Below are positions 10,609 to 30,084 of a stretch of DNA of 64,000 bases, piece by piece. The position numbers and the translations under genes are program-made. The stretch comes from Mucilaginibacter tundrae (GTDB lineage Bacteria > Bacteroidota > Bacteroidia > Sphingobacteriales > Sphingobacteriaceae): positions 1-64,000 of the forward strand of contig NZ_JACCBZ010000013.1 of assembly GCF_013408825.1 (NCBI RefSeq). Direction: 5' to 3'. Under the pieces are notes generated by a model, which saw nothing but the letters and a program-made list of their open reading frames with translations, had not been told where the DNA came from and searched no databases. The number at the start of each line of letters is the position of its first letter. Positions within the stretch are counted from its first letter, which is position 1.

Positions 10609-12495
10609 ATGATCAGATTTACACCGCCTGCGCTTCGTAGTGATTTTATTATCGTGGTTCGCAGGGGCGAATCGGAATTGGCAGCGACGGCTTTGTCCTT
10701 TCTTTTTCAGTCCGGTAGTTATTTGCCGATGTTCGCTTTCACGGATGTCGATGTCCCGGCGGATGCGCCGGTGGTTGAACCGGACATTTATGGTATTCAG
10801 CGGCGGCGTGCCGAACATTTTTCCATTTTCCTGAACAATGTCATCATCCAAAATGGCGGCTGTCAAAATTTAATTTTACTTGGGTTGACAGATAATCAAT
10901 TGTCTTATTTAGATTATCTCGATCACTACAATGTACTGCAAATTGGGTCGGCTGCTGACTTAGATGCATATCTGGGAGGCTTCGCGTTTGATAAGCAAGC
11001 CCCTTTAGTATGTTCTTCTGAACAATATCATCAAGGTTGTGTACTTGCCTTACAGCAAAATCGGCTTTTGCAGGTTGGCTTTCAAAATGTCGATTTAGAG
11101 ACGCAGGCTGATGGTCAGCAAGGTGTTGTCGTCATTGAGCGTATGGCTACCGTGGAAACGGTCATCGCCATCAATTATGCGGCCAGTATCGGGGCCAAAA
11201 TTATTCTGGTAGACGAAATGCAGGAGCGTGAGAACGAGAAAGTTTTGTATCTGCTGGAGGAGTGGCACACTGGCGATCAAAACGCCTTGGACCGATTGCA
11301 GGACCAAATCGGGTCGAGGATTGGCGGGATCAATTTTGACAAGTTTGAATTTGCCACTTTTTTCACGGAAGGTTTACCGTATTCCTTGTTCGTGCGCTCA
11401 ATCCCGGTATCATATGTCAACCTGGAATACCGTCCGGATTTTTTTATTCACAATTCTTTTAAATATGAGCGGAATAGAAAGTCAGGTTCGGCCGTAATTT
11501 TTTCGCCGGTATTCTTTAAAGATGAAGAAACATCAAACCTCCTTGGCCTGCTGGAATTTAAAAATTATTATTTACGCAAGCTGACCGCAGGTGCGGCTAC
11601 GAATTACAACCTTAAAAATACGATCGAAAGCTATCCTTTCGATCTGCTCCATATCTGCAGTCATGGCGGTGATGTCCGAGGTATCCGTTCAGAGGTGCGA
11701 TTTCGAGGGGCTGAGGGTGCGACTCATACCATCGAATTTGATTTTATCCTGACCATCGCCTTAACCCCTTACCAGGATATGCATTCGGTGGAAACCCTAT
11801 ATTTTTTCAAAAAACTGGATGGACTACCTTGGCGAAGTCCCGAATTACATGCTAAGGGCTACTCTCATGAATTATATGCAGGTATCTCTGGCGCTATTAG
11901 CACTGCATTTAAAAAGAAAACGGTCATCAGGAAACACGAAACTGCTCGGGTTACCAATGCTAACGCCATTAATTGCGTCGATTTTAATTACCTCGCCAAT
12001 TTTAGCCAAATAGCCAGCGACGACCATCCACCGCTGATTTTTAATAACACGTGCTGGTCTTGGATGAGCGTGTCTACCAGTTTTCTAACCGACGGTGCCC
12101 GCGCTTATATCGGTACCTTCTTTTCCGTCCCGAATTCCAAAGCCGTAGTTTTTGCAGAGACCTTTTATGACCAGGTATTTGATGCAAATATCATCGATGG
12201 TTTTCACACCGCAAATACAGAAGCACAACAAGATGGGACGACGCCATTTTACATGTTCTGGGGTTTGCACTTTTCTACATTAAATAATACCAACACGGTA
12301 CGCGCCAACCGAGAGTTTGTCCTTAAAGGCCTCAGCAGAAGTCATCAGATATGGCGGCGTAAGCGTGATGCCGGCGAAGGCGCAAAAGATCTTTTGGAGG
12401 GGAGAGTTTCAGATACCCTCTGGATGTTGAATGATGTTTTTAAAGGATCAATCGAAGGACATACACCTACCGGATTTCGTTCGAACCGCAAATAA
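10609..12495 (+). CDS. CHAT-type caspase-like protease
   Basis: The 628-residue protein has a C-terminal half that reads as a CHAT (caspase HetF-associated) peptidase. The histidine block DLLHICSHGG contains the predicted catalytic H352. The cysteine block PPLIFNNTCWSW contains C482, followed by the typical FLTDGARAYIGTFFSVPNSKA and a FAETFYDQVF helix. The first 280 residues look like an alpha/beta domain (VVVIERMATVETVIAINYAA) that I cannot name; it may be a sensor or adaptor. No TPR repeats or signal peptide are visible, so it is cytoplasmic. In known systems CHAT proteases are effectors cleaving a partner after infection sensing, but no obvious gasdermin-like or other substrate gene is adjacent. 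The gene is visibly richer in G+C than the operon at 20876. Confidence 0.7.
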   Translation: MIRFTPPALRSDFIIVVRRGESELAATALSFLFQSGSYLPMFAFTDVDVPADAPVVEPDIYGIQRRRAEHFSIFLNNVIIQNGGCQNLILLGLTDNQLSYLDYLDHYNVLQIGSAADLDAYLGGFAFDKQAPLVCSSEQYHQGCVLALQQNRLLQVGFQNVDLETQADGQQGVVVIERMATVETVIAINYAASIGAKIILVDEMQERENEKVLYLLEEWHTGDQNALDRLQDQIGSRIGGINFDKFEFATFFTEGLPYSLFVRSIPVSYVNLEYRPDFFIHNSFKYERNRKSGSAVIFSPVFFKDEETSNLLGLLEFKNYYLRKLTAGAATNYNLKNTIESYPFDLLHICSHGGDVRGIRSEVRFRGAEGATHTIEFDFILTIALTPYQDMHSVETLYFFKKLDGLPWRSPELHAKGYSHELYAGISGAISTAFKKKTVIRKHETARVTNANAINCVDFNYLANFSQIASDDHPPLIFNNTCWSWMSVSTSFLTDGARAYIGTFFSVPNSKAVVFAETFYDQVFDANIIDGFHTANTEAQQDGTTPFYMFWGLHFSTLNNTNTVRANREFVLKGLSRSHQIWRRKRDAGEGAKDLLEGRVSDTLWMLNDVFKGSIEGHTPTGFRSNRK

Positions 12496-14996: not shown

Positions 14997-15896
14997 ATGC
15001 ATGTCAATATCACCAAAAGCGAAACCGGGAATAATAAAGGCAGCAGCAGCGCTTTGGTTTCCTATCTGGAAAAAGAGAATAAGTTAAATGAGCATATCGA
15101 ATACTGGTTCAACCAGGAACGGAGCGATATCCAGCCTTATGAAGTCAGGCAAACTATCGATGGTAACATTGCCAAGCTTGCTAAAGATGACGCGAAGTTT
15201 TTCCTGATCAATATCAGCCCGAGTGCAAAAGAATTGCTTTACCTCAAGGAACAATACGGCGAAGCGGGCGTAGAAGGTTACCTGAAAGATTATGCGAACC
15301 AGGTGATGGATGCTTACGCTAGAAACTTCAAGCGGGATGGAGTAACCGGGAACAGTGACTTGGTTTACTTTGGTAAACTGGAGCATTACAGATATTACAC
15401 TTACAAGGACTTAGAGGTAAGGAAGGGATTGGCAGAGAAAGGCGACCGTAAGCCGGGAGAACAAATGCATCTACAGATCATTGTTAGCCGTAAGGATAAA
15501 AGCAACAGTATTAAACTTAGCCCGCTGAATAACTCTAAAGGAAAGAACGCTGCACACAGCCAAAAGGTAGGTCAGTTTGACCGGGTGGCTTTTAAGCAGC
15601 AATCTGAAAGTTTATTTGACGGAATGTTTGACTACCAGAGAGAGATAAAAGAATCTTTTAAATATGCTAATACGCAGAAGCATGGTACTTATGAGGAAAA
15701 GCAGGAAATAAAACAGCAGCAGTTATTGCAGCAAGCTAACATTCATTTTCAACAGGGAGGACATTATCATGGCAAGGGCTTGCTTGAAATTTTACTGGAT
15801 GGCGAACAGCCTTATATTGCACCGCCAATGCCTGATGCACGCAGGCGAAAGAAAAAAAGAAGAGGTCCTGATCATAATCAGGGGTATCGAATGTGA
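14997..15896 (+). CDS. BtgB-type relaxase/mobilisation protein
   Basis: The 299-residue protein starts HVNITKSETGNNKGSSSALV and contains the central block GEQMHLQIIVSRKD, where a histidine-containing strand is followed by SNSIKLSPLNNSKG. This fits the BtgB/DUF5712 mobilisation proteins of Bacteroidota, which are thought to act as relaxases. The nicking residue is probably one of the tyrosines in LEHYRYYTYKD, not determined here. The C-terminus is basic (RRRKKKRRG), suiting DNA binding. It is the last gene of the mobilisation cluster. No coupling protein or integrase is adjacent, so transfer would need a helper element. Confidence 0.75.
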   Translation: MHVNITKSETGNNKGSSSALVSYLEKENKLNEHIEYWFNQERSDIQPYEVRQTIDGNIAKLAKDDAKFFLINISPSAKELLYLKEQYGEAGVEGYLKDYANQVMDAYARNFKRDGVTGNSDLVYFGKLEHYRYYTYKDLEVRKGLAEKGDRKPGEQMHLQIIVSRKDKSNSIKLSPLNNSKGKNAAHSQKVGQFDRVAFKQQSESLFDGMFDYQREIKESFKYANTQKHGTYEEKQEIKQQQLLQQANIHFQQGGHYHGKGLLEILLDGEQPYIAPPMPDARRRKKKRRGPDHNQGYRM

Positions 15897-20875: not shown

Positions 20876-22108
20876 GTGGTTCAAGACAATTTCATAAAAA
20901 TAATTTCGAATAATGGAGGGACGTTCACATCTTTCCGATTTTATAATGAGCTCTTATATGAAGTTGCGGAATATTATAGATCCCCTAATTACCGTGCATT
21001 ACCGCCAACTTTTGTAATCGGTAAAAATCTGTTAATAGATCCACCAATATTGCCATTATTAATTACGCTGGGGGCTTACCTTAAACAATATCACAAACAA
21101 ACCCTTTCCCTCGTTCTGGAAAATGATTTGAATAACAATAACATAATCAATTTCTTATTAAGGTCCGACTTTTTATATATAGTCGGTGATAATACTAACC
21201 CAACATTTCCTATAGGAAAAAATATTTTTCATTTTGACAAAACTCAAATTGGCGGATTCATTAACAAACAAGAATACAGAACAGATCATAAGGTCAGGAT
21301 TTACTCTACAACAGATACTGGGGTTATAAGTGTTAATAATATAATTGGAGAGGAATCAAAAAGAGATTTCTTAATCGAGCATTTTTCCTTTACAGTCGAA
21401 AATCATTTTAAAGATTTACTACGGGATAGCATAACATCAATTGAGTTAAATAATAAGATTACCGACAGTTTATCGGAACTTATAACTAACGGGCTTTATC
21501 ACTCCGGTTCAGATGCTTATGTAATGATGTTTAGAAACAGGTATAAAACCACTTGTTCCATATCAGACAATGGAATTGGTTTGTATCAAACTATTGCATT
21601 GAAAACAGTGTCTGAATATTATATCCCTCTTAATTTATTTAATATTCTAAAAGAAAAGATCACTTTAAATATGTCTCAAGACATCAAAGATTGCGCATTT
21701 GCCATTTTTGAAACATTCTTTTATTCGATGCTTAAAGATAGGCAAGGATTATTTGATTTAATCCTAAACATTGTAATTGATTGCAAAGGCTATTTTAGGT
21801 TGCATTACGATTATGTACAATTAATTATATCAGGTAGAATGCTTCCCGAATTGAATGAATTAGCACAGATAAGAAATAAAATCAGACATGTTCATAACCG
21901 GATGAGTTTTGCTCAAATAGACAAAAAAGAACATGTTTCAACGATGATTAAATTATCTGCTGAAGCCAAAAACGCTGTTATATCGTTGGCTCAAAGCATT
22001 TTTCAAAAATATTCCCATGATGTTCAATACTCAGCTATCAGAATATACAGTGTCAAATTTAGGGGAGTACATATAGAAACCGAGATCCCACAAGAAATTA
22101 ATCAATAA
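20876..22108 (+). CDS. STAS-like/GHKL ATPase-fold protein
   Basis: The start is a GTG; no better start is seen. The 410-residue protein has an N-terminal part (about 35-115) that resembles a STAS-like domain (LLIDPPILPLLITLGAYLKQ ... FLLRSDFLYIVGD). A GHKL ATPase domain follows: the N box SELITNGLYHS contains E201 and N205, and the G1 box SDNGIGL contains D231. A long helical insertion replaces the usual lid and histidine-kinase parts, and the fold closes with a strand VKFRGVHIETEIP. No phosphoacceptor histidine helix is seen, so it is not a classical kinase. It is the first gene of a tight operon (1-nt gap to the next). I infer it is the sensor or switch of that system. Confidence 0.7.
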   Translation: MVQDNFIKIISNNGGTFTSFRFYNELLYEVAEYYRSPNYRALPPTFVIGKNLLIDPPILPLLITLGAYLKQYHKQTLSLVLENDLNNNNIINFLLRSDFLYIVGDNTNPTFPIGKNIFHFDKTQIGGFINKQEYRTDHKVRIYSTTDTGVISVNNIIGEESKRDFLIEHFSFTVENHFKDLLRDSITSIELNNKITDSLSELITNGLYHSGSDAYVMMFRNRYKTTCSISDNGIGLYQTIALKTVSEYYIPLNLFNILKEKITLNMSQDIKDCAFAIFETFFYSMLKDRQGLFDLILNIVIDCKGYFRLHYDYVQLIISGRMLPELNELAQIRNKIRHVHNRMSFAQIDKKEHVSTMIKLSAEAKNAVISLAQSIFQKYSHDVQYSAIRIYSVKFRGVHIETEIPQEINQ

Positions 22109-22109
22109 T

Positions 22110-23117
22110 ATGGTAATCTCGGCAATCAGACAAGCAGATTCTTTATACATTGATGTTCATGCGGAACAATCATATACAGGAACATTTTTAGCAGATAAAG
22201 GCGATGTCAACACCAATATTAACCTTGGGATTTTTGGTTATGAGTTAACCAGAGAAACGCTAATAAATATTAATAGTTATGTTAAAAGCATAGGTGAGAA
22301 ATTAAACGTTGTTTTGGACTTTTCAAATATCAAAGACATACAATCTAATCAACAGAAATTGATTGTTGAACTAAAAAACAACTCAAAAAAGTTAGTATTT
22401 ATTAACATTAATGAAGAAGTAGTAAAAAATTCAAACGTTGATATCTATACGCACAATAAGAAAATAGGGCAGGTTTATCCAACTTTTTACCTTACCGATA
22501 ATAAAGAAGATATCGAAATAAAAAATGCCGAATTTCTTTTTGACGAAGAGTTTATAAAAAGATTAAAAAATATCGTAATCGATCTCGAACCAGGTAAGGC
22601 TTACCGTCATAACTCGCCAATTTATTTGCCTAAGTTTATTGATATCAAAGGTTTAATGGTTGCAGATATAGGATTTTTCATGTACGTTATTTATAAATTG
22701 GCAAAGCGAGTTAGCGCTAAACCGGAATGGAACAATTTAACACAACAGCCAATTTTATTCTGTCAAAATTTGAACGGGGCATTTATTGCTTCGGTTCTAT
22801 CAAGTTTTTTAGACTGGGATATTCTGTCAATGGACCATATCGGACCCGTGAATAAAGTTTATAGTAATATTGGGAGTAAGATCAAATCTGATGCTTTGTA
22901 TGTTGTGGTTTCAGATGTGGTTTGCTTAGGTACTGAAATTCGTATCTGCCAAAACATTATCAATTATTCCGGAGGCAAGTATATCGGAAATGTATCAATT
23001 GTTAGGGTCGATACTCTTGTGCCTGAAGACCAAGCAAAAGATATGGTAAGTGTATTTAATTTATCGAAAAACAATAATCCGATTGATTACAAGATACTAA
23101 CGGCACTAGATTTATAA
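22110..23117 (+). CDS. STAS-like/phosphoribosyltransferase-fold protein
   Basis: The 335-residue protein has an N-terminal half (about 1-110) with a STAS-like pattern (LNVVLDFSNIKDIQSNQQKL, then KKLVFINI), similar to anti-sigma antagonists. The C-terminal half resembles a type I phosphoribosyltransferase of the orotate kind: YLPKFIDIKGLMVADIGFF corresponds to the N-terminal hood, PILFCQNLNGAFIASVL to the first substrate loop, and ALYVVVSDVVCLGTEIR to the PRPP loop. The PRPP motif is degenerate (SDVVCLGTE, D269, in place of DDxxTTGxT), so activity is uncertain. It begins 1 nt after the GHKL gene stop. STAS and GHKL proteins commonly bind each other, so a complex of the two is plausible. Confidence 0.6.
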   Translation: MVISAIRQADSLYIDVHAEQSYTGTFLADKGDVNTNINLGIFGYELTRETLININSYVKSIGEKLNVVLDFSNIKDIQSNQQKLIVELKNNSKKLVFININEEVVKNSNVDIYTHNKKIGQVYPTFYLTDNKEDIEIKNAEFLFDEEFIKRLKNIVIDLEPGKAYRHNSPIYLPKFIDIKGLMVADIGFFMYVIYKLAKRVSAKPEWNNLTQQPILFCQNLNGAFIASVLSSFLDWDILSMDHIGPVNKVYSNIGSKIKSDALYVVVSDVVCLGTEIRICQNIINYSGGKYIGNVSIVRVDTLVPEDQAKDMVSVFNLSKNNNPIDYKILTALDL

Positions 23118-23128
23118 ATGATCAAGAT

Positions 23129-24925
23129 ATGTCAAATAAAATAATTATTCATCTGTCAGATCCACATGTTAGTATTCATTTAGATGGTGATGGAAAACCT
23201 CTTGCTGAAATCAAATCCTGGCTGACTACTTTGCATGATGAATCTCAAAATAAAAATTTTATTGATGAATTTATTAGATACATTAATGAACGGTTTCCAG
23301 ACAATGAAAAGTTTATAGTAATTACTGGTGATCTCGCCGATCAATCTTTGCAACAAGAGTATGTATTCTTAAAGAAAATATTAGATCGCATTTTAGAAGG
23401 GCTTAAGGTCGAAATTGACCATGTAATGATTCTTCCTGGGGATCACGATGTAAATCGAGCAAAGCTAGCTCTAGCTTACGAAAAATCTGATAAATCAAAA
23501 TTTGCTTATGAGCTGTCAGAAGACAAATTCTTTTTCTTTTCCGAGTTCTACCGAGATTTTCTTAAGCGGGACTTTCAATATGATAAGGTAATTTGCGATA
23601 AATTGGTATTTGAGCAAGAAAAGTTAATAATGATTGGCTTGAATTCTAATGGAAGAATTGGCACTATGGGTGGCCTAGGTTATATTGACAATGATCAACT
23701 TAATGAGGAATTAAAAGCTTTAAATGCCGGCCTTGTGGATTATTCAAAAGTGGCTCTCTTTCATCATAATCTTTCGGGTCAATACGAATCAAATCCCGAT
23801 GGACAATGGGATCATCAAAATAAAATAGAAATTTTACGGACTTTAGAAAATCATCAATTTAAAGTTGTTTTTTTTGGTAATGAACATACCTCTGGTTCTA
23901 ATAGTAGTAATCAATTAGCGCAAATATCTGTTGGCTCTTTTGCTAAAAAGGGTTCGTTGGCAGGTTTCAAAACTTATACAATTGTTTCCAAAGATGAATC
24001 CCTTTCTTTCGAGCATCGCAGGTATTCTTTAGTAAGCGATAACGCTCGAACAGGCTTTCCTTTTGGAAGTTGGTCGGAGATTGAGTTGAATAAACAAAAT
24101 GAAAATATTCCCATAATTATTATCAGGAATCCGGCACCAAAAGAGGAAATAAAAGCTCAAAATCTGACAGCGGATAAGCAAGCCGATGAAAAAACAGTTG
24201 AGGCCGACGCTTTACCTAATGAAGTGTCTGCGGCTGTTCTGAAAACCCAATCTCCGCAATTTGACTTTAACAACAATGATTATCATAAAAAACTATTTGA
24301 AATTGTCAGAAAGTTAGAACTATTCAAATCAGGACATTTTCATTGGAGCGATTCATCAAAAGCACACAACTGGATAGATGTACCTATGCTGCTATCAAAC
24401 CGGGAGCACGTGTTTTTAGCTCAAAAAGCGATCTTAAATATCATTGAGCAAAATAATATTGAGTTTGATTTTGTAGTTGCGCTAGGGATTGAAGGAAATA
24501 TCATCGCCAGCTATACTGCGCTTAGAACAAATAAGCCATATTCTTATTTACCATACTCTTATCGTTACCAAGACCATGAGGAATACGAAAAAAACATTTC
24601 TTTAAAGAATGAAGGTCGTTATAAAAAAATTTTGGTAATCACAGATGTAGTAAATAATGGTAAAACTGTTGACAGACTTTTACAGAGTGAAACTGAATTT
24701 TTTTCTGGTGATTATGTAAATAAGATCTCGGTTGTTTGTCTCTTTTACACCGGAGAAAAAGATAGTGGGCTAATGGATTTAAATCCTAATGAGCGGATTC
24801 AGCATTACTTTGTCTCGCATATGAAAGTTGAACGTTGCCCCTATGGAAAAGATTTTAGGGATTCATGTATGATTTATAGAGAAAAATTGGCTTGTGTACA
24901 TGAATTTTATGATGCAAATATTTAA
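23129..24925 (+). CDS. Metallophosphoesterase fused to phosphoribosyltransferase
   Basis: The N-terminal 290 residues form a calcineurin-like metallophosphoesterase. The metal-site motifs are SDPH (D11, H13), TGDLAD (D68), PGDHDVN (D105, H106, with Asp in place of the usual Asn), HHN (H212) and GNEHTSG (H253). After a variable linker (about 320-375) comes an orotate-phosphoribosyltransferase-like domain, with a hood like FKSGHFHWSDSSKAHNWIDV, the loop DFVVALGIEGNIIASYTAL and a PRPP loop ILVITDVVNNGKT (D506, T513). The PRPP motif is closer to canonical than in the previous gene. The domain pair could make and break a phosphoribosyl compound. It is the last gene of the operon (11-nt gap). Confidence 0.7.
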   Translation: MSNKIIIHLSDPHVSIHLDGDGKPLAEIKSWLTTLHDESQNKNFIDEFIRYINERFPDNEKFIVITGDLADQSLQQEYVFLKKILDRILEGLKVEIDHVMILPGDHDVNRAKLALAYEKSDKSKFAYELSEDKFFFFSEFYRDFLKRDFQYDKVICDKLVFEQEKLIMIGLNSNGRIGTMGGLGYIDNDQLNEELKALNAGLVDYSKVALFHHNLSGQYESNPDGQWDHQNKIEILRTLENHQFKVVFFGNEHTSGSNSSNQLAQISVGSFAKKGSLAGFKTYTIVSKDESLSFEHRRYSLVSDNARTGFPFGSWSEIELNKQNENIPIIIIRNPAPKEEIKAQNLTADKQADEKTVEADALPNEVSAAVLKTQSPQFDFNNNDYHKKLFEIVRKLELFKSGHFHWSDSSKAHNWIDVPMLLSNREHVFLAQKAILNIIEQNNIEFDFVVALGIEGNIIASYTALRTNKPYSYLPYSYRYQDHEEYEKNISLKNEGRYKKILVITDVVNNGKTVDRLLQSETEFFSGDYVNKISVVCLFYTGEKDSGLMDLNPNERIQHYFVSHMKVERCPYGKDFRDSCMIYREKLACVHEFYDANI

Positions 24926-25030
24926 TTTATAGTCACCCTTTTATTAGCCAGACATGAGTGGTTTTATCTATGTAGCTGTGGCTGGTTGTAATAAAAAGTA
25001 CTTCGTTTGTTTAGTGGAAGATAAAACTGT

Positions 25031-25552
25031 ATGAAAGTTCACAATGGAATGCGGCCTCACGACGTAGTTGTGCTATTAAAGATTATTTCACAGGGTGACA
25101 AGTGGTTGAACAGAGACCTGTCTGAAGGCTTATACATAAGTTCATCTGAAATCAGTGAATCTTTAAACCGCTCAATGATCGCTCGTTTAATCAGTCCTGA
25201 CAAGAAAAAGGTGTTTAAAAGTGCATTGATTCGTTTTATTGAGAACGGATTACCGTTTGTTTTCCCGGTGAAACCGGGTGCTGTAGAACGAGGCATTCCA
25301 ACCGCCCACAGCGCGCCGATTTTAAAAGAATATATTTTATCAGAAGAACATTACGTTTGGCCAACTCCCCATGGAAAAGTCAGAGGGCAGTCGATTATGC
25401 CATTATATCCAAATCAAGTCAAAGCGGTTATGACTGACGACAAGCTGTATAATATGCTAGCTTTGGTAGACAGCGTTCGAGCAGGAAAGGTGAGGGAGTG
25501 TGAAAAAGCCATTGAATTGTTGAAACAAATTTTCGGATTGGAATATGTGTGA
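25031..25552 (+). CDS. Winged-helix-like DNA-binding protein
   Basis: The 173-residue protein starts MRPHDVVVLLKIIS and carries a MarR-like winged helix-turn-helix in the first 60 residues (WLNRDLSEGLYISSSEISES, then LNRSMIARLI). A second conserved part follows: LPFVFPVKPGAVERGIPTAH, VWPTPHGKVRGQSIMPLYP and a C-terminal helix KVRECEKAIELLK. I know this as a widespread uncharacterised bacterial family but cannot give it a function. It is followed at 100 nt by the AbiE-like pair on the same strand and could be part of the same defence module, or a lone regulator. Confidence 0.6.
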   Translation: MKVHNGMRPHDVVVLLKIISQGDKWLNRDLSEGLYISSSEISESLNRSMIARLISPDKKKVFKSALIRFIENGLPFVFPVKPGAVERGIPTAHSAPILKEYILSEEHYVWPTPHGKVRGQSIMPLYPNQVKAVMTDDKLYNMLALVDSVRAGKVRECEKAIELLKQIFGLEYV

Positions 25553-25604
25553 GCAATCGCCTGGAAGCAAATGATTCTTTAAATTATGGCTATATTTAAA
25601 AATC

Positions 25605-25643
25605 AAACTTTCGGCAATTTTTCATATTTATTGCCGTAAATTT
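25605..25643. promoter_or_regulatory. Palindromic operator/promoter of AbiE-like pair
   Basis: Arms of AAACTTTCGGCAAT type (25605-25618) face an imperfect complement (25630-25643, two mismatches of 14). The right arm overlaps TAAATTTG at 25637-25644, which matches the Bacteroidota -7 element, so a protein bound here would block the promoter. A closely related palindrome follows the operon at 27487-27525. In known AbiE systems the antitoxin represses its own promoter by binding inverted repeats. Confidence 0.6.
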
Positions 25644-25655
25644 GTTTAATTAAAA

Positions 25656-26414
25656 ATCAATCGTATAAAAGAATCAAATGACATAGCAAGGCTTAATGCC
25701 TATTTTGGAGAGCAACTTGAGCTTTCCCTGGATGCTCTGCGCTATTATTTTCGTGCAAACGAACCTCACATACCAGATGCTACAATTAAATGGCGCATAC
25801 ATGATATGGTAAATTCGGGTGTACTTAGCCGAACTGGTCGTGGCCTTTATCAGCTTGGAACCGGACATAATTATACACCCGAGCTTTCACCCCGAATATT
25901 AAAGATCAACAAGCTTTTAAAAAAGCGGTTTCCATTAATTTCGTACTGTGTGTGGGATTCCGGAATGTTAAATGAATTTGCACAGCACCTCAGTAGTTAT
26001 CATTTCATTTTGGTAGATATAGAACGTGATGTAGCAGAATCTGTATACTTCCAGCTTAAAGAGGAATTCAGCGGTGTTTTTCTTCGGCCTTCTGAAATGT
26101 TACTGAACAATGTACTGTCTGATTTTCGTTTGCCTTTGGTCGTAAGATATTTGGTTAGTGAAAGCCCGATTTCTATGCGTAATGATATGCCGGTTGTCAC
26201 TGTTGAAAAAATGTTGGTTGACATATTCTCCGATCCGGAATTTGGGTATCTTATCGGTAGTGAGCGGCGGGCAATATTTAGTAACGCTTATTATAAGTAT
26301 ATAATCAATGAAAATAAACTTTTGCGTTATGCCGCACGTAAAGGTAAGAAAGAGGAAATCCAAAATTATATACAAAAGGGTAACTTTAATAAACAACGAC
26401 CTAACCTAATTTAA
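25656..26414 (+). CDS. AbiEi-like antitoxin (DUF6577-type), start unclear
   Basis: The homologous frame runs from just after a stop at 25647: NRIKESNDIARLNAYFGEQL, LELSLDALRYYF, IKWRIHDMVNSGVLSRTGRG and LYQLG form a winged-helix of the AbiEi/DUF6577 antitoxin kind, followed by an alpha/beta part (HFILVDIERDVAESVYFQL). No ATG, GTG or TTG is in frame before 25806, and starting there would remove the recognition helices. Position 25656 (ATC) is therefore given as a hypothetical non-standard start, with 252 residues. The gene could also be partly inactive. The toxin-like gene follows 5 nt downstream, an arrangement typical of AbiE pairs. Confidence 0.6.
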   Translation: MNRIKESNDIARLNAYFGEQLELSLDALRYYFRANEPHIPDATIKWRIHDMVNSGVLSRTGRGLYQLGTGHNYTPELSPRILKINKLLKKRFPLISYCVWDSGMLNEFAQHLSSYHFILVDIERDVAESVYFQLKEEFSGVFLRPSEMLLNNVLSDFRLPLVVRYLVSESPISMRNDMPVVTVEKMLVDIFSDPEFGYLIGSERRAIFSNAYYKYIINENKLLRYAARKGKKEEIQNYIQKGNFNKQRPNLI

Positions 26415-26419
26415 CCAAA

Positions 26420-27484
26420 ATGATTTCCAAGGAAAGCCTTACACCGGAGTGGCTGGCGGGCGTATCTGCAAAAAACAATAGAGCCGACAAAATCTTAGTA
26501 GAAAAGGTAATTCGTGCATTACTACTTTTAGAAGGTCTTGTTAAATCCGATCTCAAGTTTGTTTTCAAAGGGGGGACGGCGCTTATGCTATTAATGAACA
26601 GCACTAAGCGTCTTTCAATTGACATTGATATTATTGTCAGCAAACAGCAAGGCCTTGATCAACACTTTACATCTTTTTTAACTGAACAGGGTTTTACGCG
26701 GTTCGAATTACAGGAAAGAAAAACAGCGACCGGTATTGAAAAGGCGCACTATAAATTCTTTTATGTGCCGGTCCATAAATCTAACTTGAACGAAGATTAT
26801 GTACTCTTGGATATCCTGTTCGAGGAACCTCATTATGCAAAAGTAATAGACTGGCCTATAGATTCCAGTTTTGTGCAACAGAATGGCGATCCGATAAAAG
26901 TGAAGCTACCTTGCCATGAAGATATTCTGGGCGATAAATTGACCGCCTTTGCACCTAACACCACAGGTATACCATACGAAAAGAGTGGAGATCTGAAGAC
27001 TATGGAGATCATGAAGCAACTATTTGATATTGGCAGCCTGGTGGATGTAGTAGAAGATATAGGCATTGTCGCTCAGACTTTTGATATTTTTGCTAAAACA
27101 GAGATTGGATATCGCAAATGTGATACTGATGTTAATGGTGTATTGGATGATATCTATGATACTGCTCTCCATATATGCAGTCGTGGCGTTGAGGGTAAAG
27201 GGGATTTTGCGGCCTTAACTCGTGGCATTACACAGATTAAAAGGTTTATCTTTTCTGAGAGTTATCATATTGACCGTGCTATCGTTGACGCAGCAAAAGC
27301 GGCGTATATGGCTACAGTCCTTCAAGAGCAACATACCGAGTTGGTAAGATACCAGGACGCCGCGCAAGTTAAAGATCTCGTGATAGATCAAACGTTTAAT
27401 TCAAAGCTGAATAAATTGAAAAGAGGAAACCCGGAAGCTTTTTTTTATTGGTACCAAATTTCTTTGGTTAAGAAAATAAAGTAA
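26420..27484 (+). CDS. AbiEii-type nucleotidyltransferase toxin
   Basis: The 354-residue protein carries the AbiEii/AbiGii nucleotidyltransferase signatures: KFVFKGGTALMLLMN (residues 46-60) with the GG(S/T) loop, the metal-binding pair in LSIDIDIIV (D68 and D70), and LPCHEDILGDKLTAFAPN, the motif with the conserved lysine. These toxins transfer nucleotides onto tRNA or other targets and inhibit growth; in type IV systems the antitoxin acts at the promoter rather than by direct contact. All key residues look intact. It is cotranscribed with the AbiEi-like gene. The likely role is abortive infection or stabilisation of the island. Confidence 0.85.
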   Translation: MISKESLTPEWLAGVSAKNNRADKILVEKVIRALLLLEGLVKSDLKFVFKGGTALMLLMNSTKRLSIDIDIIVSKQQGLDQHFTSFLTEQGFTRFELQERKTATGIEKAHYKFFYVPVHKSNLNEDYVLLDILFEEPHYAKVIDWPIDSSFVQQNGDPIKVKLPCHEDILGDKLTAFAPNTTGIPYEKSGDLKTMEIMKQLFDIGSLVDVVEDIGIVAQTFDIFAKTEIGYRKCDTDVNGVLDDIYDTALHICSRGVEGKGDFAALTRGITQIKRFIFSESYHIDRAIVDAAKAAYMATVLQEQHTELVRYQDAAQVKDLVIDQTFNSKLNKLKRGNPEAFFYWYQISLVKKIK

Positions 27485-27486
27485 AC

Positions 27487-27525
27487 AAACTTTCGGCAGT
27501 AAATTCATATTACTGCCCAAAGTTT
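27487..27525. repeat. Palindrome after AbiE-like toxin gene
   Basis: Two 16-nt arms with one mismatch (left arm AAACTTTCGGCAGTAA) lie 3 nt after the toxin stop codon. The core ACTTTCGGCA is the same as in the palindrome upstream of the pair (25605-25643). It may be a second antitoxin binding site, a terminator, or both. Confidence 0.65.
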
Positions 27526-27528
27526 AAT

Positions 27529-27750
27529 TCAATATTGTTTTACTGAAATGTTTTTGGGGTCTGTAGTCGATTGCAAAATATCAATAGATGCCAGTTTCTT
27601 TTTAAGCACTTCCATATCGGAGCTTATTTTATGATCCATCACTTTAGCATAGATCTGCGTGTAGGCGCAAAGGTGTGCCTGGCAATATAAAATGTAAGTG
27701 GGTTTTTAATTCCGCAAATGTCAGCGACTCTTCAAGATAATTATGCTATT
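27529..27750 (-). pseudogene. 3' remnant of a second tyrosine integrase
   Basis: Read on the minus strand, this stretch encodes TQIYAKVMDHKISSDMEVLK and then KKLASIDILQ before a stop at 27529-27531. It mirrors the C-terminus of the intact integrase at 28540 (TQIYAKVLDHKISSDMQLLR). Further upstream the similarity continues in nucleotide sequence, but with about 80 nt deleted around the second half of the catalytic domain and a shifted frame. It is clearly a decayed copy of a related integrase, so another element was once integrated here or the gene was duplicated and deleted. Confidence 0.75.
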
Positions 27751-27872
27751 TTACACAATAATTTTTACCGGCTCATAATACGGTCTTAATTATACAACTT
27801 GCACCTTACAAACAGTAACCAATAATCCATCCGGAAATCCTTTGTTCTTTCAACAATTTAATTTAAAATATT

Positions 27873-28253
27873 ATGAAATACTTACTCATTTTTATTTTTA
27901 TTCTTACGACTAAGATCTCATTTAGTCAATCTATTATAATCATTACAGGCAACGACGCTTATAAATATATTGGGCAAAAGGTTGATGTACTTGATAATCT
28001 TTATGATGGAAAGATTACCAGTGATTCTACTGCGGTTTTTCACATGGGTGAAAAAACAAGTTCACCCCGTATGACCATAATTTATATATCGAAAGACAGG
28101 GGAAGAAAATTTCCCATGGATCCGAGAATTGTTGAAAAGCTTCAGCGAATTAAACAACGCTTTTATGGTGCTGTTACAGGGACTGCGCAAGCGCCTCAAA
28201 TGATTATTACTGGTCATCCCGGCCCTATGCCACGTCAGCTTGGAAAAATGTGA
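27873..28253 (+). CDS. Secreted OB-fold-like protein
   Basis: The 126-residue protein has a signal peptide (MKYLLIFIFILTTKISFSQ, cleavage after FSQ). The mature part has a small beta-barrel pattern: DAYKYIGQKVDVLDNLYD, MTIIYISKD and RFYGAVTGTAQAPQMIITG, similar to the tOB/BOF-like OB-fold domains in Bacteroidota secreted proteins that may bind nucleic acids or ligands. No enzyme motif is visible. It stands alone between two integrase-related segments, so it may be cargo of the older element. No clear promoter consensus was found. Confidence 0.6.
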   Translation: MKYLLIFIFILTTKISFSQSIIIITGNDAYKYIGQKVDVLDNLYDGKITSDSTAVFHMGEKTSSPRMTIIYISKDRGRKFPMDPRIVEKLQRIKQRFYGAVTGTAQAPQMIITGHPGPMPRQLGKM

Positions 28254-28539: not shown

Positions 28540-29757
28540 TTAACCAATTGCTAATTTTTTTCTTAGCAGTTGCATATCGGAGCTGATTTTATGATCTAAG
28601 ACTTTTGCATATATCTGGGTAGTTTTTATACTGGTATGTCCCATCATCTTGGCAACACTTTCTATTGGAACACCATTGTTAAGCGTTACCGTTGTGGCAA
28701 AAGTGTGCCGCGCAATATGAAATGTGAGTGGCTTTTTAATTTTGCAAATGTCTGCGATCTCTTTAAGATAAGCATTCATTTTTTGGTTGCTCATTACCGG
28801 GAGCAGCGTGTCCTTAACAACGCATTGCGGGTGATCCTCGTAGGCGCGAATTACGGATAACGCAACGGGCAAGACTGGTATTCTCGAAATGGTATCCGTT
28901 TTTTGCCTACGGGTATATATCCATAAATCACCATCAATTCCCTTGACAAGTTCCGAACGTTTTAACTTATGAACATCTACATAGGCTAAACCTGTGTAAC
29001 AGCAGAACACAAACATATCTCTAACCGTATTTAACCGCTCTACACTGAATTTCTTTTTGCATAGCCGATGTAGTTCTTCGTTGTTTAATACTTCTCTGTG
29101 TACAGCCTTCTGTTTAGGCTTATAGTTCAGATAAGGATCAACCGTTAGCCAGCCATTGCCTAAGCATATACGCACGATCTTGCCAAGGTTCTTAATGTAC
29201 TTAATAGCTGAGTTATTTCCGCACTTGCGAACGCTTCGGAGGTAGTATTCAAAATCATTCAGGAATGCAAAGTTTATCCTTGTTACCGGGATATCAGAAA
29301 TGTTATGATGCAGTTGCATAAAGTCCCGGACATGCATTAAGCAGGTTTCATATCGCTGAAGTGTGCTTTTTTCAAACTCTTGGCCAACGAGGGATTTCAT
29401 CTTGTCGTTATGATCTTCAAATACAGATAAAAGTGTGCGTGCTTTTTCTGCTTTACCTGTAAAGCGATTTTTGAGTGTTTCGGCAGTTACCAACTCGTCT
29501 GCGTCAGACATTCTGCGTTGTAAGTCGTAGATCTTAAATTGAATATCATTTAAATAAGTATTCAACGTTTTTGCATCAGTTTTAGATCCAATGGCCCTGC
29601 CGCTTACTGCGTCCCATCCTTCGGGCAGATGTTTTCGTCCTACCGCAAGTTCTGCGCGGTGACCATCCAACGTGATGCGTAAATAAATAGGCATCTCACC
29701 TGATTGATAATTTTTTGGCTTTCTCAGGGAAAAAAGCAAAGAGAGTGTAGTCCTCAT
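28540..29757 (-). CDS. Tyrosine recombinase/integrase
   Basis: The 405-residue protein has the Bacteroidota integrase architecture: an N-terminal arm-binding segment (about 1-100), a SAM-like core-binding domain (about 105-205) and a catalytic domain (about 220-395). Catalytic residues are seen in FHIARHTFA (H347, R350), MMGHTSIKTTQIYAKV (H374, and the nucleophile Y383) and a lysine in RRQKTDT (K286). The first arginine position is Ala258 in YTGLAYVD, which is common in this group. The gene points away from tRNA-Asp, whose 3' end lies 254 nt upstream, so it probably inserted the island at that gene. No excisionase is next to it; the HTH gene at 13643 is far away. Confidence 0.9.
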   Translation of the reverse strand: MRTTLSLLFSLRKPKNYQSGEMPIYLRITLDGHRAELAVGRKHLPEGWDAVSGRAIGSKTDAKTLNTYLNDIQFKIYDLQRRMSDADELVTAETLKNRFTGKAEKARTLLSVFEDHNDKMKSLVGQEFEKSTLQRYETCLMHVRDFMQLHHNISDIPVTRINFAFLNDFEYYLRSVRKCGNNSAIKYIKNLGKIVRICLGNGWLTVDPYLNYKPKQKAVHREVLNNEELHRLCKKKFSVERLNTVRDMFVFCCYTGLAYVDVHKLKRSELVKGIDGDLWIYTRRQKTDTISRIPVLPVALSVIRAYEDHPQCVVKDTLLPVMSNQKMNAYLKEIADICKIKKPLTFHIARHTFATTVTLNNGVPIESVAKMMGHTSIKTTQIYAKVLDHKISSDMQLLRKKLAIG

Positions 29758-29988: not shown

Positions 29989-30010
29989 ACTGTTTTTGGT
30001 ATTGAAAAAG

Positions 30011-30084
30011 CGGAATGGACGGGACTCGAACCCGCGACCCCATGCGTGACAGGCATGTATTCTAACCAGCTGAACTACCACTCC
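30011..30084 (-). tRNA. tRNA-Asp (anticodon GTC)
   Basis: On the minus strand a full cloverleaf can be drawn. The acceptor stem is GGAGTGG with CCATTCC, the anticodon loop is CTGTCAC (anticodon GTC) on a CATGC/GCATG stem, and the T arm contains GGTTCGAGTCC. The CCA tail is not encoded. A good promoter lies just upstream (30096-30125). The 3' end faces the integrase gene, which makes it the probable attachment site of the accessory island. Confidence 0.95.

What the first reader, a model, noticed from the sequence alone, without database searches (positions are those of the whole stretch)
20876..24925. Three-gene STAS/GHKL - PRTase - metallophosphoesterase/PRTase operon
The genes are almost touching (1 and 11 nt gaps) and combine a STAS-like/GHKL ATPase-fold protein, a STAS-like/phosphoribosyltransferase-fold protein and a metallophosphoesterase fused to an orotate-phosphoribosyltransferase-like domain. 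I know of no named system with this set. It sits in an island with a CHAT protease, a HEPN protein and an AbiE pair. A possible logic (inference): the GHKL and STAS proteins sense a signal, and the transferase and phosphoesterase domains make or destroy a nucleotide. The PRPP loop of the middle protein is degenerate, that of the last is near canonical, so the first may be a regulator of the second.
Basis: partly seen in the sequence, partly recalled or inferred. Interest (0 to 1): 0.85.

Follow-up and report, generated by a model that had tools for sequence, protein, structure and literature searches.

The report
Conserved three-gene GHKL–PRTase–phosphoesterase module
Three genes that stay together across distantly related Bacteroidota, often in mobile islands among anti-phage genes, build an unnamed switch-plus-enzyme machine that probably alters nucleotides when the cell is attacked, although its function has not been tested.

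The parts
20876..22108 (+). Gene A, 410 aa: N-terminal alpha/beta domain (STAS-like not shown) and C-terminal SpoIIAB/RsbW-type GHKL ATP-binding domain (about residues 137-408)
21473..21505 (+). A: GHKL N-box SELITNGLYHS; E201, N205, H209, S210 invariant in 55 of 55
22110..23117 (+). Gene B, 335 aa: N-terminal STAS-like domain (moderate support) and PRTase-fold domain (residues 139-335)
22899..22937 (+). B: PRPP-loop equivalent YVVVSDVVCLGTE; D269, C272 and E276 in 55 of 55, G274 in 54, T275 in 53
23129..24925 (+). Gene C, 598 aa: metallophosphoesterase fused to PyrE-like PRTase, with two invariant C-terminal Cys (570, 580)
23144..23890 (+). C: metallophosphoesterase domain (residues 6-254); metal-site motifs kept, GNEH in place of GHxH
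24314..24685 (+). C: PyrE-like PRTase domain (residues about 396-519), invariant GHFHW hood, G-x-E/D-G PPi-loop equivalent
24629..24667 (+). C: PRPP loop ILVITDVVNNGKT (D506, V507, G511 in 67 of 67; first acidic position is T/S/A)
28540..29757 (-). Context: tyrosine integrase of the island, beside tRNA-Asp (30010-30084, -)
27589..27728 (-). Context: remnant of a second integrase copy (matching residues 334-356 and 380-403)

Best explanation
ABC is a horizontally spread three-protein conflict (most likely anti-phage) module of Bacteroidota. SHOWN: the conserved gene unit, the GHKL and PRTase folds (predicted models), conserved active-site-like residues, patchy distribution, mobile and defence neighbourhoods at a part of the loci. 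INFERRED: A is a SpoIIAB-like ATP-dependent switch that binds B, probably through B's STAS-like domain. B's PRTase-like domain pairs with the PRTase half of C (PyrE-type PRTases are commonly dimers with shared active sites; recalled) and holds C off or selects its ligand. On an infection cue the switch releases C, whose phosphoesterase and PRTase halves act on a nucleotide or PRPP-derived metabolite, depleting it or making a signal. Optional CinA and RES genes suggest, weakly, a nicotinamide/NAD+ nucleotide. Since the usual STAS phospho-serine position in B is a conserved Asn, I expect control by ATP-state-dependent binding, not classical serine phosphorylation. The confidence below is for 'conflict module with C's chemistry controlled by A and B'; for the details of the mechanism it is about 0.3.
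For: A-B-C order in 22 loci (gaps) plus L092 = 23 of 23; subtype II 2 of 2. Starting from A alone, 7 of 7 strong hits among 399 family genomes have B adjacent. Distance matrices of A, B and C correlate (r 0.90-0.95, 0 of 2000 permutations as high). Folds. Metal-site and PRTase motifs kept in 67 C rows. MPE domain hits DS9_1 anti-phage at 2.4e-19, in subtype II at 7.2e-13 and 1.7e-15, and DS8 at 1.9e-8 in one; a PADLOC effector model at 5.8e-7. In DS-8 and DS-9 the catalytic residues of that domain are needed for defence (PMC13092281, passages). PRTases are probable effectors in retrons and in a DprA-PRTase anti-phage system (PMC9122126, passages). Neighbours include type I restriction, RT-SLATT, AbiE (the window's own), AbiJ, a TIR-type model and, at one subtype II locus, Cas6/Cas8b. 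Integrase-like ORF in 9 of 25 module loci against 2 of 20 control regions. Transfers between families on the C tree. CinA 4-37 nt after C in 5 loci, as an extra copy in 5 of 5 genomes.
Against: No function has been tested for any homologue that I found. PADLOC tallies are not a clean statistic: 36 and 32 families near the module, 29 in the control, with overlapping models that hide distinct-protein counts. Several loci adjoin ordinary metabolic genes (sulfatases, TonB receptors, rhamnosidase), and 16 of 25 had no integrase-like ORF in the stretch examined. STAS in A not supported, and A and B N-termini show no detectable kinship. No A-B or B-C complex was modelled. CinA next to C was seen only in Flavobacterium; short CinA genes also lie away from the module in three of the twelve genomes searched (G563, G781, G1516); RES is one case. 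The first acidic residue of the PRPP motif is absent in B and C, so PRTase catalysis may be lost. Low GC is weak evidence, since other kilobases of the window are as AT-rich. No match in viral contigs or phages and only one partial MPE hit on a plasmid.
Confidence: 0.5

Rival explanations
1. Addiction module that stabilises islands: C is a PRTase/phosphoesterase toxin, B (a PRTase-like decoy) and A form the antitoxin; phage defence is secondary.
For: Tight or overlapping genes and integrases at part of the loci; PRTase-type probable effectors are known (PMC9122126 passages).
Against: A last, large enzyme with two large regulators is unlike common two-gene TA pairs (recalled); both regulators keep ATP-site or PRPP-loop residues, which a plain antitoxin need not.
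Confidence: 0.2
2. Signal-making module: C (with B) makes or destroys a nucleotide messenger that acts on other proteins, such as the CinA or RES product encoded next to some copies.
For: Transferase-type (PRTase) and hydrolase-type (MPE) halves in one chain; CinA next to C in 5 loci, RES in 1; PRTase plus phosphoesterase signal synthesis proposed for Ter systems (PMC7824862 passages).
Against: Fourth-gene candidates tested by tblastn were not shared by the other loci, CinA apart, so a dedicated effector is not general.
Confidence: 0.15
3. Accessory nucleotide salvage or metabolic regulation unrelated to conflict; the B and C PRTase domains sense PRPP, as in PurR.
For: PurR is among B's structural matches (1p4a, 7rmw); hits of subtype II C include regulator-type PyrE-like models; some loci adjoin metabolic genes.
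Against: Rare (own genome alone among 395 class genomes), transferred between families, no DNA-binding family matched in A, B or C.
Confidence: 0.15

Closest known systems
DS-8 and DS-9 (DefensePredictor systems, PMC13092281)
   Same: Metallophosphoesterase domain related by profile (DS9_1 2.4e-19; one subtype II C also DS8 1.9e-8) and, there, needed for defence
   Different: DS-9 pairs the enzyme with a HAD phosphatase, DS-8 has a NACHT domain; the paper's main text has no occurrence of STAS or GHKL and names PRTase only in a figure legend, for a system I could not see; our score is 69.6 bits against a cut-off of 420
SpoIIAB/RsbW anti-sigma kinases with SpoIIAA/RsbV STAS partners
   Same: A's GHKL domain is closest to these structures; B has a STAS-like N-terminus
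   Different: A is a large protein with an extra N-terminal domain and an insert; no sigma factor lies in the three-gene unit; the STAS phospho-Ser position is Asn in 51 of 55 B proteins
PRTase effectors of retrons and the DprA-PRTase system
   Same: PRTase-fold protein in an anti-phage setting (PMC9122126 passages)
   Different: No reverse transcriptase or DprA in the unit; PRTase fused to a metallophosphoesterase and accompanied by a second PRTase-like protein
Ter-associated PRTase and phosphoesterase modules
   Same: PRTase with a phosphoesterase, proposed nucleotide signalling (PMC7824862 passages)
   Different: Ter uses HAD-fold phosphoesterases and Ter proteins, which are not in this unit
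PyrE and PurR
   Same: Fold and motif arrangement of the PRTase domains
   Different: Non-canonical PRPP loops, GHFHW hood in C, extra domains

Membership tests
DS-9 anti-phage system | DS-9A-type phosphoesterase over the NCBIfam equivalog cut-off | tested here: not met
   69.6 bits against a cut-off of 420; model positions 192-452 of 486 matched
DS-9 anti-phage system | Second gene encoding a HAD phosphatase | tested here: not met
   The adjoining genes are B (PRTase fold) and, downstream, a PDC-M21A protein with no Pfam match
SpoIIAB/RsbW kinase family | GHKL fold with invariant Glu and Asn of the N-box and G1 box D-x-G-x-G (motifs recalled) | tested here: met
SpoIIAB/RsbW kinase family | Phosphorylatable Ser on the STAS partner (recalled) | tested here: inconclusive
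   Asn in 51 of 55 B proteins at the aligned position, but the register rests on a 46% hhalign match
STAS domain (A N-terminus) | Profile similarity to STAS | tested here: inconclusive
   hhalign probability 0.4% against 25 STAS rows; fold not searched as a separate domain
STAS domain (B N-terminus) | Profile similarity to STAS | tested here: inconclusive
   hhalign probability 46%, E 2e-4, over 53 columns; subtype II 1.5%
Type I PRTases (PyrE/APRT) | PRTase fold | tested here: met
   B; C: TIGR00336 2.8e-8, 33.7 bits, under its cut-off of 106.8; C was not modelled
Type I PRTases (PyrE/APRT) | Two adjacent acidic residues in the PRPP loop (motif recalled) | tested here: not met
   T/S/A-D in 67 C rows, S/A-D in 55 B rows
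Calcineurin-like metallophosphoesterase | Five metal-site motifs (recalled) | tested here: met
   D68, H106, D107, H212, H253 in 67 of 67, D11 and H13 in 66 (1 gap); 105 is D in 61 and N in 6, 251 is N in 63 and H in 4; canonical GNHD in both subtype II C proteins
Anti-phage defence system | Protects against phage | not testable with these tools
   needs phage challenge

The most novel reading that the evidence does not exclude
A new class of bacterial immune system in which a SpoIIAB-like partner switch (A with the STAS-like part of B) governs a hetero-dimeric PRTase (B with C) whose phosphoesterase and transferase halves rewrite a pyridine nucleotide pool (NMN/NaMN/NAD+-related), with exchangeable add-on enzymes (CinA, RES) tuning the product.
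Probability: 0.17. Interest if true: 0.9.

Novelty: categorically new. Interest (0 to 1): 0.72.

Why it matters
I found no named system in PADLOC-DB, NCBIfam, Pfam or the papers searched that combines these three parts. If it defends cells, it would bring partner-switch signalling, known from sporulation and stress sigma factors, into bacterial immunity, and give a tractable three-gene handle on what metallophosphoesterases and PRTases do in defence, which the DefensePredictor paper leaves open for DS-8 and DS-9 (passages). The novelty lies in the assembly, not the folds.

Tried and rejected
Chance grouping: rejected by synteny in every locus that holds all three genes. B as a decaying copy: rejected, its altered loop is invariant. 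Phage or plasmid cargo: no relative of C in 50,697 phage records; one partial MPE hit in 72,556 plasmid records; none there for B or subtype II B; none confirmed in viral contigs with three alignments, though 12, 55 and 20 stretches matched a pattern. att repeat from the tRNA-Asp end: no convincing copy in the window, so the island is not delimited. Kinship of the B and C PRTase halves by profile: hhalign aligned them at 1.6% probability, so a recent duplication is not shown. A and B N-termini as one domain: not supported. RES in L020: one case, 27.0 bits against a cut-off of 23.2, and no NCBIfam RES match. (ShosT) matched unrelated words. No control was run for the Pfam neighbour tallies. Weak A hits (E 5.8e-8 to 9.9e-4) in 8 of 395 class genomes, in 8 further family genomes and as second hits in two of the strong ones were taken as other GHKL proteins; their short flanks held no B or C. 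Rows left out of the count of loci holding all three genes: L021, L022, L023 and L070 (cut by contig ends). Kept in the count: L017, whose C is interrupted by a stop, and L019, whose A is called short (313 aa). On re-reading I corrected the GC statement, the CinA E-values and the PDC-S02 count, added the CinA copies away from the module, and lowered the novel-case odds from 0.20 to 0.17 for that reason.
Full report
OBSERVATION. Genes A (20876-22108), B (22110-23117) and C (23129-24925) are open as described, with gaps of 1 and 11 nt. The window is C13 of a 4.83 Mb, 24-contig genome; its nearest module relatives are in Mucilaginibacter and Pedobacter. The four kilobases of the cassette have 31-35% GC; the five kilobases before it have 38-42% and 25001-27000 has 39%, but 27001-28000 (35%) and several distant kilobases (34-35%) are as AT-rich, so GC alone says little. 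It lies in an island beside tRNA-Asp (30010-30084, -) with a tyrosine integrase (28540-29757, -) and a remnant of a second one (27589-27728, -). Neighbours include a HEPN protein, a PDC-M21A protein and an AbiEi/AbiEii pair.

A CONSERVED UNIT. Searching genome contigs of 84,980 species with C gave 22 loci; 19 held all three genes, and in all 19 they were adjacent, in order, on one strand; in the other three the contig ended within or beside the module. In 19 of these, L017's C is interrupted by a stop and L019's A is called short (313 aa). In 399 genomes of the window's family A had 7 strong hits (E under 1e-100, own genome included), 7 of 7 with B adjacent; fetched regions added L071 and L072. 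With the window these make 22 loci, with gaps of -20 to +6 nt (A-B) and -86 to +11 nt (B-C) for mechanically chosen starts; G1438 (L092) makes 23. Pairwise-distance matrices correlate at r 0.914 (A-B), 0.902 (A-C) and 0.950 (B-C), with none of 2000 permutations as high; this does not separate co-evolution from shared descent. Prevalence is low: the own genome alone among 395 class genomes, 7 of 399 family genomes, 3 of 397 in the family of G780, that genome included, and 3 of 395 phylum genomes, the own one and one of the second subtype included. An A relative is also listed from Bacteroides thetaiotaomicron (P0102, 44% identity).

SECOND SUBTYPE. Flavobacterium hydatis holds a second, distant B (E 3.3e-21). 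Around it lie, in the same order, a GHKL-type protein, the B relative and a 534-aa MPE-PRTase with canonical GNHD (L083). Subtype II B is 17-25% identical to the 14 subtype I B proteins aligned with it. The three subtype I profiles detect the L083 genes at 1.8e-17 (A), 4.1e-24 (B) and 8.9e-34 (C) in a small ORF set.

NEIGHBOURHOOD AND MOBILITY. Three genes on each side in 23 loci (the 22 plus the contig-cut L070) gave 69 upstream and 63 downstream proteins; two loci had no downstream gene. PADLOC at E 1e-10 listed 36 and 32 families (25 of each shown), among them type I restriction, RT-SLATT, AbiJ, a TIR-type model, several candidate (PDC) families and the window's own AbiE pair. 120 genes from 20 control regions listed 29, 19 of the 25 shown being one candidate family, PDC-S02, the rest DndA, SspA, CARF_2OG, PD_DExK, SduA and PD-T4-6. 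The numbers of families hardly differ; the kinds do, and I treat this as qualitative. Pfam found PF00589 integrases in 7 of 63 downstream proteins. In a controlled count, 9 of 25 module loci and 2 of 20 control regions hold an integrase-like ORF. On the C tree (25 rows) L071, from the window's genus, pairs with Flavobacterium psychroterrae (100/98), and a Sphingobacterium copy sits among Weeksellaceae (98/97): horizontal spread. No phage or viral-contig record was found to carry it.

OPTIONAL FOURTH GENES. In L004, L005, L007, L021 and L022, all Flavobacterium, a short CinA-family protein (PF02464, 5.3e-34 to 2.4e-31) starts 4-37 nt after C. All five genomes also carry a CinA in a longer frame (420-454 aa) elsewhere, so the module copy is an extra. 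Two of them (G781, G1516), and G563, whose module has none next to C, hold a further short CinA elsewhere, so short CinA is not exclusive to the module. Four of the five loci are in the tree: L004 and L005 pair (99/98), L021 pairs with L071, which has no CinA after C, and L007 is unresolved; so the gene was gained or lost more than once. L020 has a RES-domain protein 2 nt after C (PF08808 5.3e-6). NMN deamidase activity of CinA and NAD+ cleavage by RES are recalled; the pyridine-nucleotide idea rests on these neighbours alone.

RELATION TO KNOWN SYSTEMS. The MPE domain's best NCBIfam match is DS9_1, and in subtype II DS9_1 in both and DS8 in one, far under the equivalog cut-offs. Passages of PMC13092281 state that catalytic residues of this domain are needed for defence by DS-8 and DS-9 and that its target is unknown. 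Passages of PMC9122126 describe a DprA-PRTase anti-phage system and PRTases as probable retron effectors. Passages of PMC7824862 describe Ter systems with PRTases and HAD phosphoesterases as signal makers. Paper searches for the combination led to no description of it: I read passages of those three papers, and the other papers listed I saw only as listings. The library holds open-licence PMC papers only, so prior description elsewhere is not excluded.

VERDICT. A real, conserved, unnamed three-gene module (near certain), probably a conflict system (about 0.6), with a switch-controlled nucleotide enzyme as the leading mechanism (about 0.3 for its details).

Noticed in passing
L091 3290-5936: Cas6 and Cas8b/TM1802-type genes within about 2-5 kb of the subtype II module, in a genome outside the window's class
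   Followed up: partly
L091 12936-14555: ThiF-type protein (PRK06153 family) with a small partner gene; a transposase-like fragment (my reading of the ORF) lies at 11900-12433
   Followed up: no
L083 7260-7793 (-): 177-aa protein directly after subtype II C, with a relative (38% identity) next to the subtype I C of Mucilaginibacter hurinus (L023 776-1312), on the opposite strand; no Pfam match
   Followed up: partly
L017 9998-11824; L023 and L070: C is interrupted by a stop in Chryseobacterium candidae and lies on two contigs in Mucilaginibacter hurinus
   Followed up: no
window 27589-27728: Fragment of a second integrase copy near the intact one, suggesting stacked islands at tRNA-Asp
   Followed up: partly
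window 10609-12495 and 14997-15896: Weak CHAT-domain protein (PF12770 1.8e-4) and a DUF5712 protein (1.5e-91) in the same region
   Followed up: no
L011 11880-13355; L015 11911-12621: Unknown proteins 10 and 83 nt after C in two loci, no Pfam match
   Followed up: no
G563:C1:2873584-2874027, G781:C21:1001221-1001667, G1516:C113:44130-44585: Short CinA genes away from the module; their neighbourhoods were not read
   Followed up: no
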